Shown: positions 30,572-36,314 of the stretch, piece after piece
How the letters are laid out: the number at the start of each line of letters is the position of its first letter
How positions within the stretch are numbered: position 1 is the stretch's first letter
NCBI GenBank assembly: GCA_948469815.1
Contig: CAOKMR010000008.1
Location: 1 to 50,279, forward strand
Source of the DNA: an uncultured Clostridiaceae bacterium
Lineage (GTDB): Bacteria; Bacillota; Clostridia; TANB77; CAG-508
Reading direction: 5' to 3'
DNA: 50,279 bases
Notes under the pieces: generated by a model
Told to the model about the DNA's origin: nothing
Databases searched by the model: none
The model's input: the letters and a program-made list of their open reading frames with translations, nothing else
Made by a program: the position numbers and the translations under genes

Positions 30572-30593
30572 TAAAAAAATGGAGGAAACAAAA

Positions 30594-32600
30594 TTGGAAA
30601 AAGAAGAAAATATATTAGGAAGTGAAAAAATACAAAAATTAATTATAAAATTCTCAATCCCTTGTATAATATCACTATTAGTAAATGCATTATACAATAT
30701 TGTAGACCAAATATTTATTGGTTGGGGAGTAGATTATTTAGCAAATGGAGCAACAAATGTAGTATTCCCATTAACAATGATATGTTTAGCATTTTCTCTA
30801 ATGATTGGAGATGGTGCATCAGCTTATTTAAGTCTAAAATTGGGAGAAAAGAAAAAAGACGAAGCAGGAAAAGGTGTAGGAAATGCAATTACATCATCTA
30901 TAATAATAGCAATTATATTTTGCTTATTTACATTAATATTTTTATCACCATTATTAAATATGTTTGGATGTACAGATGCATTAAGAGACTATGCTATTGG
31001 ATATGGAAGAATAATAGCAATAGGGTTACCATTTATGATGATAGGAACTACACTAAACTCAATAATAAGAGCAGATGGAGACCCTAAATATGCAATGACA
31101 TCTATGGTACTAGGTGCAGTTATAAACATTATACTAGACCCAATTTTCATATTTGCATTTAAAATGGGGATAGAAGGGGCAGCAATAGCAACAGCATTAA
31201 GTCAATTCATAACATTTGCACTAAATATTATGTACATAAAAAAATTCAAATCAGTAACATTAACAAAAGAAACATTCAAAGTTAAATTTAATGTATTAAA
31301 AAGAATATCAACATTAGGAATAAGTAGTTTTGTAACACAAATGAGTTTTGTAGTTGTTATGGCATTTGAAAACAATTTACTTGCAAAATATGGAGCACAA
31401 TCAAAATATGGTTCAGAAATACCAATAACAGTTTTAGGCATTGTTATGAAAATAAGTCAAATATTAAATAGTATAATAATTGGAATTGCAGCAGGTTCAC
31501 AACCAATTTTTGGATACAATTATGGAGCAAGAAAATTTGATAGAGTAAAACAAACATTAAAATTAGTATTAGGATTAAGTGTAATAATAAGTACTATTGC
31601 ATTTATACTGTTCCAAGCAATACCAGATAAATTAATTGCCATATTTGGTAGTGGTGATGAACTATACATGGACTTTGCATGTTTATCATTTAGAACATAT
31701 TTACTACTATGTATTTGTAATGGAATACAAATACCAGCAGGAATATTCTTCCAAGCAATAGGAAAAAGTGTAAAAAGTGTAATTTTATCATTATCAAGAC
31801 AAATTGCATTTTTAATACCATCAATGATAATATTAAGTAGTATGTTTGGAATTATGGGAGTTCTATATTCAGGACCTGTAGCAGATGGAATAGCATTTGT
31901 GCTTGCAGTAGTATTGATAGCTTTAGAGGTAAAAAATTTAAGTAAAGAAACATCAAAAAGTAATGCACTAGAAGATGATACAAGTACAGATAAAAAATTA
32001 GAAGAACATATTGTAATAACAATATCAAGAGAATATGGCTCTGGTGGAAGATATATAGGAAGATTAATTGCAGACAAACTAGGAATAAAATTATATGATA
32101 AAGAATTCATAAAAAAAGTAGCAGAAGAAACTGGATTATCAGAAGAATATATAGAAAATCATGAACAGAAAAGAGAAATACTAGAAAATTTAAACAATGG
32201 ATATTACTTTGGATTAAACTATTCAGACGAACTATTTATAAAAGAATCAGAAGTAATAAAACAAATTGCAGAAAAGGAATCTTGTGTAATTATAGGTAGA
32301 TGTGCAGATTTCATATTAAAAGATAGAGAAGATGTAATAAAAGTATTTATATATAGTGATATGAAAGATAAAATAAAAAGAGTTAAAGAGATTTATGGAA
32401 TTGAAAACGCAAAAAAAGAAATACAAAAAGTAAATAAATTAAGAGCAAATCATTATAAACACTATACAGAAAAAGAATGGAGCAATAACGAAAACTATGA
32501 TATATCAATAAATAGTGAAACTCTAGGAGTAGAAAAAACAGCAGACCTAATTTGTGGAATAGTAAAGCAGAAAGAAAATAAAGTTATAGAGAATGTGTAA
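30594..32600 (+). CDS. MATE-family transporter fused to a cytidylate-kinase-like domain
   Basis: About 668 residues. The first ~450 are a MATE antiporter with twelve hydrophobic segments, beginning QKLIIKFSIPCIISLLVNAL and including YNIVDQIFIGWGV and RADGDPKYAM. After a charged linker, the last ~200 residues are a P-loop kinase of the cytidylate-kinase-2 family: ITISREYGSGGRYIGRLIAD, CVIIGRCADFIL, RANHYKHYTEKEW. ATG 30579 lies in the ribosome site (atGGAGGaaac), so TTG 30594 is the likelier start. MATE proteins export drugs or metabolites by Na+/H+ exchange; why a nucleotide kinase-like domain is attached is unknown. Confidence 0.88.
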   Translation: MEKEENILGSEKIQKLIIKFSIPCIISLLVNALYNIVDQIFIGWGVDYLANGATNVVFPLTMICLAFSLMIGDGASAYLSLKLGEKKKDEAGKGVGNAITSSIIIAIIFCLFTLIFLSPLLNMFGCTDALRDYAIGYGRIIAIGLPFMMIGTTLNSIIRADGDPKYAMTSMVLGAVINIILDPIFIFAFKMGIEGAAIATALSQFITFALNIMYIKKFKSVTLTKETFKVKFNVLKRISTLGISSFVTQMSFVVVMAFENNLLAKYGAQSKYGSEIPITVLGIVMKISQILNSIIIGIAAGSQPIFGYNYGARKFDRVKQTLKLVLGLSVIISTIAFILFQAIPDKLIAIFGSGDELYMDFACLSFRTYLLLCICNGIQIPAGIFFQAIGKSVKSVILSLSRQIAFLIPSMIILSSMFGIMGVLYSGPVADGIAFVLAVVLIALEVKNLSKETSKSNALEDDTSTDKKLEEHIVITISREYGSGGRYIGRLIADKLGIKLYDKEFIKKVAEETGLSEEYIENHEQKREILENLNNGYYFGLNYSDELFIKESEVIKQIAEKESCVIIGRCADFILKDREDVIKVFIYSDMKDKIKRVKEIYGIENAKKEIQKVNKLRANHYKHYTEKEWSNNENYDISINSETLGVEKTADLICGIVKQKENKVIENV

Positions 32601-32795: not shown

Positions 32796-34529
32796 ATGGA
32801 AAATAGAAAATTATTTGAAGCCAAAGAATTTAAAAGTGTCAAAGAGATAATTTATGAATCAGCTAAGAAATACAATGAAAAAACAGCATTTGTAATAAAA
32901 CACCAAGAAAATAAAAAAGTAACTTATGAAAATATTTCATATAAAGGATTATTAGAAGACATAAATAAACTAGGAACCATGCTTTATGAAAAAGGGTTTA
33001 AAGGAAAAAGGATAGCTGTTATTGGAAAAAACAGATATGAATGGGCATTAGCACATTTGTCAAACTTACTTGGGGGAATAGTATCTGTACCATTAGACAA
33101 AGATTTACAATATGATGAACTTGAAAACTCATTAATTAGAAGTAAAGCAGAATGTATAATTTTTGATGAAAAACTAACAGAGAAAATGCTAGAAATAAAA
33201 GAAAAAAATAAAACATGCTTAAAAGAATACATATGTATGGGAGAAATAGAAGGCTTCGAATCTGTAAAAAAACTTATAAATGATGGAGATAAATTATTAC
33301 AGGAAGGAAAAAAAGACTATATAAATGCACAAATAGATGAAAATGCAATGAATATATTATTATTTACATCAGGAACAACATCAAAATCAAAAGCAGTAAT
33401 GATATCCCAAAGAAATGTAGCTTCAAATATATATGCAATGCAATGTGTAGAAGATATTAGGGAAACAGATACAAATATTGCATTTTTGCCATTCCATCAT
33501 ATATTTGGTTCAACAGGAATGTTAATGATGTTAGCAACAGGAGTGAAAACTGTATTTCCAGATGGGTTAAGATATATTAAGCAAAATTTAAATGAATATA
33601 AAGTAACTTTATTTATTGGAGTACCTTTATTAGTAGAAGCAATATATAAAACGATAATGAAAGAAATAGAAAAACAAGGAAAAACAAAATTAATAAAGAA
33701 TGCAATGAAAATAAGTAATTTTTTACTAAAATTCCATATTGACATAAGAAGAAAATTATTCAAACCAGTAATAGAAGCATTAGGAGGAGAATTAAGATTT
33801 GTTATATCTGGAGGTGCACCAGCAGACCCAGAAATATCAAAAGGATTTAATAACTTAGGAATAAAAACAGTACAAGGCTATGGTCTAACAGAGACATCAC
33901 CAGTAATAGCAGCAGAAGATAATAAACACATGAAAAATGGTTCAGTAGGATTACCAATGATTAATGTAACTATGGAAATTGCAAACAAAGATGAAAACGG
34001 TATAGGAGAAATAAGAGTAAAAGGACCAAATGTAATGTTAGGATATTATGAAATGCCAGAAGAGACAGAAAGTGTATTAAAAGATGGGTGGTTCTATACA
34101 GGAGATTTAGGCTATATAGATGAAAAAGGATATTTGATTATAACAGGTAGAAATAAAAATATGATAGTTCTAAAAAATGGAAAAAAAGTTTTTCCAGAAG
34201 AACTAGAAACTTTAATAAATAGAATAGAATTAGTAGAAGAATGTTTTGTTTTTGGTTTACCAGATGAAAATGATAAAAATGATGTAAAATTATCAGTAAA
34301 AATTGTATATAGTAAAGAAGTTGCACAAGAAAAATATAAAGATAAATCCGAAAATGAATTATTTAAAATTATTTGGGATGAAATAAAAAAATTAAATACT
34401 ACTTTTCCTAGATATAAACATATTCAAAATATGATTTTAAGTAGTGAGGAATTGATTAAGACTACAACTAAAAAAATTAAACGTCAAGAAGAGATGAAAA
34501 GAATCATTAATAATTCTTTTCCGACTTAA
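32796..34529 (+). CDS. Long-chain acyl-CoA (or acyl-ACP) synthetase, copy 1
   Basis: AMP-forming ligase of 577 residues that activates a fatty acid via acyl-AMP. Motifs: LLFTSGTTSKSKAVMIS (A3, ATP binding), GYGLTETSPV (A5), WFYTGDLG (A7), GRNKNMIVLKNGKKVFPEE (A8) and TTTKKIKRQ with the A10 Lys. About as long as FadD-type enzymes. It heads the fatty-acid synthesis cluster, so it may return exogenous or recycled fatty acids to CoA or ACP. The ribosome site (tttgggg) is weak. Confidence 0.9.
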   Translation: MENRKLFEAKEFKSVKEIIYESAKKYNEKTAFVIKHQENKKVTYENISYKGLLEDINKLGTMLYEKGFKGKRIAVIGKNRYEWALAHLSNLLGGIVSVPLDKDLQYDELENSLIRSKAECIIFDEKLTEKMLEIKEKNKTCLKEYICMGEIEGFESVKKLINDGDKLLQEGKKDYINAQIDENAMNILLFTSGTTSKSKAVMISQRNVASNIYAMQCVEDIRETDTNIAFLPFHHIFGSTGMLMMLATGVKTVFPDGLRYIKQNLNEYKVTLFIGVPLLVEAIYKTIMKEIEKQGKTKLIKNAMKISNFLLKFHIDIRRKLFKPVIEALGGELRFVISGGAPADPEISKGFNNLGIKTVQGYGLTETSPVIAAEDNKHMKNGSVGLPMINVTMEIANKDENGIGEIRVKGPNVMLGYYEMPEETESVLKDGWFYTGDLGYIDEKGYLIITGRNKNMIVLKNGKKVFPEELETLINRIELVEECFVFGLPDENDKNDVKLSVKIVYSKEVAQEKYKDKSENELFKIIWDEIKKLNTTFPRYKHIQNMILSSEELIKTTTKKIKRQEEMKRIINNSFPT

Positions 34530-34595: not shown

Positions 34596-36314
34596 ATGGA
34601 TAAGCGAATATACGACCATTTAGAAATAACAGATTTAAAAGATATGTTAAATAAAACTAAAAAATTATATGGAGAAAAGCCAGCCTATAAAATAAAAATA
34701 GAAAATGGAAAATATGAAATTTTTACACACAATGAAATAAGAGAAATGATAGATGCTCTAGGAACCTCTCTAATAAACTTGGGATTAAAAGGAAAAAGAA
34801 TAGCCGTAATTGGGGAAAACAGGTATGAATGGGAAATTGCATATTTATCAATAGTTTGTGGAACTGGGATAGTTGTGCCATTAGATAAATCATTGCCAGA
34901 AAATGAATTAAAAGAATTAATAGAAAGGTCAGAAATAGAAGCTATTTTTTACTCAAAAAAATATGAAGAAAGCATAAAAAGGATAAGATATAGTCATAAA
35001 AATAAACTTAAACATCTAATAGCAATGGATTTAAATTCACACTCAGAGGGAATTTACTCACAAAAAGAGCTAATAGAAACAGGCAAAAAGCTTATAGACA
35101 AAGGAAACAGAGAATTCATTAATGCAGAAATAAATGCAGAAGAAATGAGTATAATGCTATTTACATCTGGAACAACATCAAAATCAAAAGTAGTAGCATT
35201 ATCTCATAAAAATATATGTTCAAACTTAATGGATATTGGAAGCATTATAGATGTTACATCAGAAGACGTCCTACTTTCAATATTACCTATACATCATGTA
35301 TTTGAATGTACAGTAGGATTTTTATTTTCGCTATATAAAGGAGCTCAAACAGTATTTTGTGATGGATTAAGGCATGTAGTAGAAAACTTAAAAGAATATA
35401 ATGTAACAGTAATGGCATGTGTTCCAGCAATATATGAAAGAATCTTTATGAATATTAAAAAGCAAATAGAAAGACAAGGGAAGCTAGAAGAAATATTAGA
35501 GAACGAAGAAAAATATAAAAATGCTTCTATGGAACAAAGAAAAGAAGTATTTAAAGAAATACATAATATGATTGGTGGAAAAGTAAAATTATTCATAAGT
35601 GGAGCAGCAGCTTTAGACCCAAAAATAGAAGAAAAATATAGACTACTTGGAATAAATATAGTACAAGGATATGGTCTAACAGAAACCTCTCCAGTTGTAG
35701 CAATTGGAACAAATAAATATTATAAAACAGGTTCAATAGGAAAAACAGTACCAAGTGTTGAAGCAAAAATAGTAAATGCAAATGATGAAGGTATAGGAGA
35801 GCTTATTGTAAGAGGACCAAGCATTATGTTAGGATATTTTAACAATAAAAAAGCAACAAATGAAGCTATAAAGGATGAATGGTTCTATACAGGGGACTTA
35901 GCTAGAATAGATGAAGAAGGGTATATATACATTTGCGGAAGAAAGAAAAGTGTAATAGTACTAAAAAATGGTAAAAATATATTCCCAGAAGAAATGGAAA
36001 ACCTAGTAAACAAAATAGAAGGTGTAGAAGAATCATTTGTATTCGGTAAAAAGCAATCAGAAGATAAAAATGACATAAAAATAAATGTAAAGATAGTATT
36101 TAATAGAGAAATAATAAAAGATGTTTACAAAGTAGAAGCAGATGAAGAAATACATGATGTTTTAGCAAGCAAGATAAAGGAAATAAACAAAACAATGCCA
36201 AAATACAAAGCAATAAAAGGAATAATATTAACAGAAGAACCACTAATAAAAACAACAACAAATAAAATAAAAAGGCAGGACAATTTAGATGCAATTGAAA
36301 AAGTTAAAAACTAA
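34596..36314 (+). CDS. Long-chain acyl-CoA (or acyl-ACP) synthetase, copy 2
   Basis: 572 residues, same architecture as the previous gene and clearly its paralogue: MLFTSGTTSKSKVVALS, GYGLTETSPVVAIG, WFYTGDLARIDEEGYIYICG, VLKNGKNIFPEEMENL and TTTNKIKRQ. An insertion around residues 295-320 (rich in Glu/Lys) sets it apart. ATG follows ggaggg by 12 bases. Its 3' end overlaps birA by 26 bases, suggesting translational coupling to the biotin and fatty-acid genes. The two copies probably differ in chain-length or acceptor preference. Confidence 0.9.
   Translation: MDKRIYDHLEITDLKDMLNKTKKLYGEKPAYKIKIENGKYEIFTHNEIREMIDALGTSLINLGLKGKRIAVIGENRYEWEIAYLSIVCGTGIVVPLDKSLPENELKELIERSEIEAIFYSKKYEESIKRIRYSHKNKLKHLIAMDLNSHSEGIYSQKELIETGKKLIDKGNREFINAEINAEEMSIMLFTSGTTSKSKVVALSHKNICSNLMDIGSIIDVTSEDVLLSILPIHHVFECTVGFLFSLYKGAQTVFCDGLRHVVENLKEYNVTVMACVPAIYERIFMNIKKQIERQGKLEEILENEEKYKNASMEQRKEVFKEIHNMIGGKVKLFISGAAALDPKIEEKYRLLGINIVQGYGLTETSPVVAIGTNKYYKTGSIGKTVPSVEAKIVNANDEGIGELIVRGPSIMLGYFNNKKATNEAIKDEWFYTGDLARIDEEGYIYICGRKKSVIVLKNGKNIFPEEMENLVNKIEGVEESFVFGKKQSEDKNDIKINVKIVFNREIIKDVYKVEADEEIHDVLASKIKEINKTMPKYKAIKGIILTEEPLIKTTTNKIKRQDNLDAIEKVKN

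What the first reader, a model, noticed from the sequence alone, without database searches (positions are those of the whole stretch)
30594..32600. MATE transporter fused to a cytidylate-kinase-like domain
One uninterrupted frame joins a complete 12-helix MATE antiporter to a 200-residue P-loop kinase of the cytidylate-kinase-2 family, with intact GSGGRYIG and GRCADFIL motifs. The pairing suggests coupling of export with nucleotide sensing or phosphorylation. It starts 8 bases after the racemase gene, so it is probably co-transcribed with the wall-precursor genes.
Basis: partly seen in the sequence, partly recalled or inferred. Interest (0 to 1): 0.55.

Follow-up and report, generated by a model that had tools for sequence, protein, structure and literature searches.

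The report
Drug-exporter fused to a kinase-like domain
A bacterium makes a drug-exporter protein with a kinase-shaped domain on its end, and the same domain turns up joined to or beside several unrelated transporters, so it may be a still unstudied controller of membrane transport.

Summary
One frame (TTG 30594 to stop 32600, 668 aa) joins a complete 12-helix MATE exporter of the DinF type to a Cytidylate_kin2 (PF13189) domain through a loose linker. It is not an artefact: 15 of 56 sampled genomes (own included) hold the full fusion, down to about 30% identity, and both halves are under purifying selection. The wall-precursor link is local: alr lies beside 4 of 63 other fused loci, all in the window's genus.

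(1) The pair also exists as two touching genes, in either order. (2) The domain is C-terminally fused to other membrane proteins: EamA transporters, a DUF6198-like protein of unknown function, and (one genome each) an NCS1 permease and a Na+/H+ exchanger. Standalone copies sit beside membrane-protein genes more often than background genes do, though outside MATE this rests largely on two families. (3) It is probably not a CMP kinase: in profile alignment the Walker A lysine is an invariant glycine, the curated (d)CMP-kinase model fails, and the genome has its own cmk.

Most likely this is a nucleotide-binding module that regulates its transporter. Ligand and regulation are inferred.

The parts
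30581..30585 (+). GGAGG ribosome-binding site for the TTG start
   Evidence: sequence
30594..32600 (+). fusion gene, 668 aa, MATE exporter plus Cytidylate_kin2 domain
30594..31943 (+). MATE half (residues 1-450), 12 helices; D38 (30705-30707) aligns with the helix-1 aspartate of DinF-BH; D182 (31137-31139) is invariant in alignment A1
31944..31994 (+). linker (residues 451-467), low confidence in the model and fast-changing in 4 of 5 comparisons
31995..32585 (+). Cytidylate_kin2 domain (residues 468-664), P-loop kinase fold
32028..32054 (+). REYGSGGRY loop (residues 479-487): R479 99%, G485 100% in 156 domains; stands where CMP kinases have Walker A
32295..32309 (+). GRCAD motif (residues 568-572): G568 100%, R569 96%; aligned with the GRD region of CMP kinases
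32442..32498 (+). region R617 to Y635 with near-invariant R617, W629 and Y635 (96% each)

Best explanation
The protein is a MATE (DinF-type) exporter whose C-terminus carries a divergent P-loop domain that works as a regulatory subunit. The domain binds a nucleotide or nucleotide-like ligand shared by most of its family and, through the flexible tether, switches or tunes the transporter to which it is attached. Shown here: the two-domain anatomy, the conserved pocket-type residues, recurrent physical and genetic pairing with MATE and with other membrane proteins, and the missing canonical Walker A lysine. Inferred: that the domain binds a nucleotide, that binding changes transport, and that phosphotransfer is weak or absent. 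That the C-terminus is cytosolic follows from the known MATE topology, which is recalled, not tested.
For: Fusion conserved, with both halves under purifying selection: dN/dS 0.10-0.22 for MATE and 0.05-0.25 for the kinase-like half in five comparisons. The pair also exists as two genes overlapping by 4 bases, MATE first (L063) or kinase first (L064, L066). Annotated adjacent pairs: Roseburia sp. 831b and Eubacterium eligens. A table for a C. difficile isolate lists an efflux regulator, a 204-aa 'cytidylate kinase' and a 442-aa MATE protein under consecutive tags (PMC5337907, one passage; that this kinase is PF13189 is inferred from its size). C-terminal fusions to EamA (L084) and a DUF6198-like membrane protein (L086; 26.7 bits, just under the cut-off of 27), an NCS1-type permease (L297) and a Na+/H+ exchanger (L298); the L086 fusion is full length in 14 of 16 genus members, own genome included. 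Standalone copies: 23 of 60 have a same-strand neighbour with six or more hydrophobic stretches within 60 nt against 14 of 333 background genes; second sample 10 of 43 within 100 nt against 15 of 333. Of 12 plasmid-collection records found with the kinase domain alone, 11 were inspected: 7 have a transporter gene directly beside it on the same strand (MATE 4, SLC13 1, ABC 1, ECF 1), 1 has an RND gene one gene away, 3 have none. R479, G485, G568, R569, R617, W629 and Y635 are 96-100% conserved in 156 domains although partners carry very different cargo.
Against: No ligand, transport or regulation was measured. Most standalone copies in both samples have no polytopic neighbour (37 of 60; 33 of 43), and some sit by RNase Y, citrate synthase, EF-G, a class-II glutamine amidotransferase or other soluble genes. 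Of the 16 non-MATE polytopic neighbours in the first sample 15 come from two families (f44, f74); merged by similarity the non-MATE signal is 2 of 20 clusters at 50% identity (p 0.23), 5 of 28 at 60% (p 0.01), 10 of 38 at 70% (p 3e-5). In the second sample non-MATE is 5 of 38 (p 0.04), and three of those five look like BacA, a membrane enzyme rather than a classical transporter. The NCS1 and Na+/H+ fusions were each seen in one genome, with no full-length partner in the other 30 genomes searched. DUF6198 has no known function. The L086 and L298 domains lack R479 (H and S there) and W629. MATE fusions are rare outside the window's relatives: 3 of 398 phylum genomes plus one broken copy, and 2 of 118 class genomes, own genome counted in each. 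R or K follows the invariant glycine in 84% of domains and could replace the missing lysine after a one-residue slip, so phosphotransfer is not excluded; the alignments to CMP kinases are weak.
Confidence: 0.45

Rival explanations
1. The domain is an active kinase acting on the cargo or on a cargo-related metabolite: it phosphorylates a compound before export, or traps an imported one, and each family member is tuned to its transporter's cargo.
For: P-loop kinase fold: cytidylate kinases Z 15.1 and 14.2, APS kinase 13.8, gluconokinase 13.4, shikimate kinase 13.3; phosphate-binding-type arginines R569 and R617 kept in 96%; in one clade it sits by MFS_2 sugar transporters and once by a fucose-isomerase-like gene; one copy is fused to a cytosine/purine-type NCS1 permease.
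Against: The pocket-type residues hardly vary across partners with unrelated cargo; Walker A lysine and Ser/Thr absent in the profile alignment; partners include a Na+/H+ exchanger and ABC exporters.
Confidence: 0.25
2. The domain phosphorylates the transporter or another protein, in the manner of a protein kinase built on a P-loop fold (HPr kinase is the recalled parallel).
For: Tethered on a low-confidence, probably flexible linker next to the transporter; fused to membrane proteins of different folds.
Against: No target site was sought; the canonical catalytic lysine is absent.
Confidence: 0.1
3. It is an ordinary CMP kinase that happens to be tethered to a transporter, with no functional link.
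For: Fold similarity and weak sequence similarity to CMP kinases.
Against: Fails the curated (d)CMP-kinase model (33.5 bits, cut-off 102.1); the genome carries another gene that reads as an ordinary cmk with a normal P-loop (not scanned separately); fusions and adjacencies recur above background.
Confidence: 0.08

Closest known systems
DinF-type MATE exporters (DinF-BH, PDB 4lz6/5c6n)
   Same: Same 12-helix fold (5c6n: Z 41.9, rmsd 2.8, 439 residues, 33% identity), helix-1 aspartate kept
   Different: The solved chains end after the MATE part; no kinase-like domain
Cytidylate_kin2 proteins 3hdt (Clostridium symbiosum) and 3fdi (Eubacterium ventriosum)
   Same: Same fold (Z 24.4 each) and sequence family
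   Different: Standalone chains of 223 and 201 residues, titled putative kinase and uncharacterized protein; the library searches found no functional study
CMP/dCMP kinases (Cmk)
   Same: Same broad fold; GR motif aligned with GRD
   Different: No Walker A lysine or Ser/Thr in the profile alignment; fails TIGR02173
Universal-stress-protein regulator TeaD of the ectoine transporter TeaABC
   Same: Small nucleotide-binding subunit paired with a transporter; deleting it potentiates transport (PMC8280820, passages read)
   Different: Different family and fold (recalled); the analogy is about working principle only

Membership tests
MATE family (DinF-like) | two MatE repeats | tested here: met
   PF01554, 2 stretches, 125 bits; TIGR00797 182.5 bits, cut-off 147.4
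MATE family (DinF-like) | 12-helix MATE fold | tested here: met
   12 helices in the model; Z 41.9 to DinF-BH
MATE family (DinF-like) | helix-1 aspartate for cation coupling | tested here: met
   D38 aligns with the column that is Asp in 4lz6 and Asn in 5c6n; that this is the D40N mutant, and the role of the residue, are recalled
MATE family (DinF-like) | drug/cation antiport activity | not testable with these tools
   no assay
Cytidylate_kin2 (PF13189) | profile over its curated cut-off | tested here: met
   179.3 bits, cut-off 28, positions 1-175 of 176
(d)CMP kinase | curated equivalog model TIGR02173 | tested here: not met
   33.5 bits, cut-off 102.1
(d)CMP kinase | Walker A GxxGxGK[ST] | tested here: not met
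   ungapped profile alignment puts invariant G485 at the Lys and R486 at the Ser/Thr; with a one-residue slip R/K486 could stand for Lys, but the Ser/Thr is still not kept
(d)CMP kinase | CMP kinase activity | not testable with these tools
   no assay
transporter-associated nucleotide-binding regulators (as a functional kind) | domain fused to or encoded beside several transporter families | tested here: met
   fusions to MATE, EamA, NCS1, Na+/H+ exchanger and gene pairs; statistics strong for MATE, weaker for the rest
transporter-associated nucleotide-binding regulators (as a functional kind) | nucleotide binding that changes transport | not testable with these tools
   no assay

The most novel reading that the evidence does not exclude
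PF13189 is a general transporter-control domain: a pseudokinase-like nucleotide sensor derived from the CMP-kinase fold that bacteria attach to exporters and importers of many folds (MATE, EamA/DMT, NCS1, Na+/H+ exchangers, a DUF6198-like protein, and by gene pairing MFS, amino-acid permeases, CitMHS, SLC13 and ABC systems), letting cytosolic nucleotide state gate many kinds of transport. (Lowered from 0.40 in the draft: on recount the DUF6198 partner has no known function, and the non-MATE neighbours come mostly from two families.)
Probability: 0.35. Interest if true: 0.78.

Novelty: new variant of a known kind. Interest (0 to 1): 0.6.

Why it matters
PF13189 domains of 100 bits or more occur in 49 of 118 sampled genomes of the window's class (counted from the list), and NCBI's annotation names them cytidylate kinase-like (for example), a name that the sequence evidence here makes doubtful. 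If the domain controls transporters, it gives a testable handle on how these anaerobes regulate drug efflux and nutrient uptake. The fusion in this window is a convenient single-chain test object.

Tried and rejected
Wall-precursor link: not seen outside the genus. Conserved neighbour of the fusion: four neighbour clusters reached 4 or more loci (largest 8), none in a fixed place outside the genus, in 63 fused loci of 72 examined (L043 and L113 appear to be one contig held twice). Assembly artefact: rejected by recurrence. Plain CMP kinase: disfavoured. Literature: searches for the domain's names, for PF13189 and for the pair found no study of the fusion (listings, and passages of the papers named here). 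One paper that the index lists for PF13189 showed no occurrence in the main text; one Chloroflexi paper only lists such a gene (PMC8756737, one passage). This covers an open-licence library only; I recall, untested, that domain databases list this architecture. The full-length fold search is filled by MATE rows, so the domain was folded alone.

Rows dropped before counts; 8 of 68 loci lost their kinase to a longer overlapping ORF (L055, L073, L190, L191, L193, L201, L206, L211); six of them have a MATE or MFS_2 neighbour. One gene was counted twice (L079 and L216), corrected. The 61 kinases were the strongest standalone matches, not a random draw, and frames over 300 aa were left out, including the branch of about 316-345 aa. 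Background genes come from 20 arbitrarily placed 20-kb regions of 12 genomes of the first sample; they also serve for the second sample, which is from other genomes. A few strong matches were not fetched. The count of hydrophobic stretches is a simple hydropathy rule; it misses ABC ATPases, an ABC exporter (L287) and a cut CitMHS gene (L296); 182 aligned rows, gappy and identical rows removed, 156 left, many of them MATE fusions fetched by similarity; L297 and L298 came later and are not among them; 156 to 135 at 80% identity; 135 to 94. Both trees are quick searches with many weak forks. L085 and G624 (EamA-type fusions) were not scanned with Pfam: L085 is called EamA by its likeness to L084, G624 only by its 546-aa frame and genus.

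Full report
1. The observation. The frame runs without a stop from ATG 30579 or TTG 30594 to 32600. GGAGG at 30581-30585 favours TTG 30594. Pfam finds two MatE stretches and a full-length Cytidylate_kin2 domain; NCBIfam's MATE subfamily model passes (182.5 bits, cut-off 147.4) while its (d)CMP-kinase model fails (33.5 bits, cut-off 102.1). AlphaFold2 on a 15-sequence alignment of fused relatives gives mean pLDDT 80.7 and pTM 0.63, 12 long helices, a low-confidence linker (452-467) and a kinase fold with a weak stretch at 514-543. The MATE half matches DinF-BH best (Z 41.9, rmsd 2.8 over 439 residues); D38 aligns with the helix-1 aspartate that is Asn in entry 5c6n.

2. Not an artefact. Of 56 genomes searched, own included, 15 hold a match to both halves over nearly the full length, from 97% down to about 30% identity; in one further genome (G042) the match is cut by a contig end. 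A scan of named genomes kept the best 80 loci: 45 have both domains in one frame; 8 have a separate kinase ORF, 7 beside the matched MATE gene (in L148 only a 103-aa piece) and one, L173, beside another MATE gene; 27 show no kinase ORF in the DNA held, although in L135 the match runs to residue 653, so a broken kinase part is likely there. The 80 were ranked by likeness to the fusion, so these shares are not prevalences. In wider samples MATE fusions are rare: 3 of 398 phylum genomes (own included) plus one broken copy, and 2 of 118 class genomes (own included). Record titles of fused loci include Clostridia, Bacilli, Erysipelotrichaceae, Lachnospiraceae and Treponema; most titles say MAG, those of L140 (Spirochaetia MS499-44) and L146 do not. 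Both halves are under purifying selection (dN/dS 0.10-0.22 and 0.05-0.25 in five comparisons); the 17-codon linker gives 0.75 or more in four and 0.13 in one. On the MATE tree the fused label needs 6 changes, all forced by starred branches; on the kinase tree 3, of which 2 are forced. So the fusion formed or broke up more than once, with the caution that both trees are quick searches.

3. Neighbourhood. alr lies beside the fusion in 4 of 63 other fused loci, all in the window's genus; the fifth other genus member keeps the fusion without it. ddl is within the held DNA in 4 of 63. No neighbour is widely conserved. The unit seems self-contained, and the wall link is a feature of this genus.

4. 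The same pair as two genes. In L063 a MATE gene overlaps a following kinase gene by 4 bases; in L064 and L066 the kinase comes first and overlaps the MATE gene by 4 bases. Roseburia sp. 831b and Eubacterium eligens show annotated adjacent pairs. A published table for a C. difficile isolate lists an efflux regulator, a 204-aa cytidylate kinase and a 442-aa MATE protein under consecutive tags (PMC5337907, one passage). In Fusobacterium nucleatum an RND permease gene and a cytidylate kinase-like gene two tags away appear in one list of changed genes (PMC9848294, one passage); in F. vincentii an RND gene lies upstream of the kinase with a 137-aa ORF between.

5. The domain on other membrane proteins. 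Fusions, with the domain at the C-terminus in each: EamA (L084 by Pfam; L085 by likeness; a 546-aa frame in G624 of the same genus, not scanned); a DUF6198-like protein (L086; 26.7 bits, cut-off 27; full length in 14 of 16 genus members, own genome included, the other two partial); an NCS1-type permease (L297) and a Na+/H+ exchanger (L298), each full length in 1 of 31 genomes searched, the source genome itself. DUF6198 has no known function, so L086 is a membrane-protein fusion, not a proven transporter fusion. For standalone copies, 24 of 61 (23 of 60 without a duplicate) have a same-strand neighbour with six or more hydrophobic stretches within 60 nt, against 14 of 333 background genes and 3 of 101 small soluble ones (p about 4e-12 against all). 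A second sample gives 10 of 43 within 100 nt against 15 of 333 (p 1e-4). Direct neighbours by Pfam or annotation: MATE, MFS_2, MFS_1, LacY, Sugar_tr, AA_permease, CitMHS, BacA, ABC importer ATPases, ABC exporters, an ECF thiamine component, SLC13. The signal outside MATE is weaker: 15 of 16 such neighbours in the first sample come from families f44 and f74; merging near relatives leaves 2 of 20, 5 of 28 or 10 of 38 clusters at 50, 60 or 70% identity; and three of five in the second sample look like BacA, a membrane enzyme (one scanned, two by size and place). Many copies have other neighbours. A third set was chosen by the kinase domain alone: of 12 plasmid-collection records 11 were inspected, and 7 have a transporter gene directly beside (MATE in Roseburia, E. 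eligens, Prevotella and Phocaeicola; SLC13 in R. albus; an amino-acid ABC system in Treponema saccharophilum; ECF in Subdoligranulum), 1 has RND one gene away, 3 have none (Monoglobus, Parabacteroides, a second Subdoligranulum record). No background was measured for that set.

6. What the domain is. Folded alone (pLDDT 87.7) it matches the two solved PF13189 proteins (Z 24.4), then cytidylate kinases (15.1, 14.2), APS kinase (13.8), gluconokinase (13.4) and shikimate kinase (13.3). In weak profile alignments to CMP kinases the Walker A lysine column is G485, invariant in 156 domains, and the Ser/Thr column is R486 (R 57%, K 27%, H 6%); R479 (99%), G568 (100%), R569, R617, W629 and Y635 (96% each) form a conserved set. 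The set is not strict: L086 and L298 lack R479 and W629. A one-residue slip could put R/K486 at the lysine, but the Ser/Thr is not kept in either register. The genome has a gene that reads as an ordinary cmk elsewhere.

7. Mechanism. A domain that keeps one set of residues while its partners move drugs, sugars, acids, amino acids or ions is more likely to read a common cytosolic signal than to act on each cargo. With the divergent P-loop this favours a nucleotide-binding regulator, like TeaD in principle (PMC8280820, passages) but of another family. Steps shown: anatomy, conservation, pairing. Steps inferred: ligand, gating, lack of phosphotransfer. The rivals are cargo kinase, protein kinase and plain CMP kinase.

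8. Novelty. The library searches found no study of PF13189 with transporters. I rate it a new variant of a known kind (regulatory domains on transporters), with a bolder reading that is not excluded.

Noticed in passing
L087, L090, L091, L094 and similar frames of about 316-345 aa: A second branch of PF13189 carries a C-terminal tail of roughly 120 residues or more; the two scanned (L087, L090) have no other Pfam match. It looks nuclease-like by eye (inference).
   Followed up: partly
L279, L280, L285 (upstream ORF 387-1964): A PF13189 gene directly follows RNase Y (L279 by Pfam; L280 and L285 by same size and place) in three genomes of one genus.
   Followed up: no
L264, L269, L272: A PF13189 gene lies beside a BacA gene (L264 by Pfam; L269 and L272 by similar size and place only).
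   Followed up: partly
window 32796-34529 and 34596-36314: Two adjacent genes that look like AMP-binding ligases (not scanned) follow the fusion and are found with it in the five other genus members, in one partly; the two kinds are 43-47% identical to each other across those loci.
   Followed up: no
L089 2153-3217: A PF13189 domain follows an N-terminal part of about 140 residues with no Pfam match.
   Followed up: no
G001:C11:7-1752 (L048): A second fused copy, about 30% identical, in a same-genus genome, cut by the contig start; with L046 and L047 it forms a distant subfamily with its own MATE half.
   Followed up: partly
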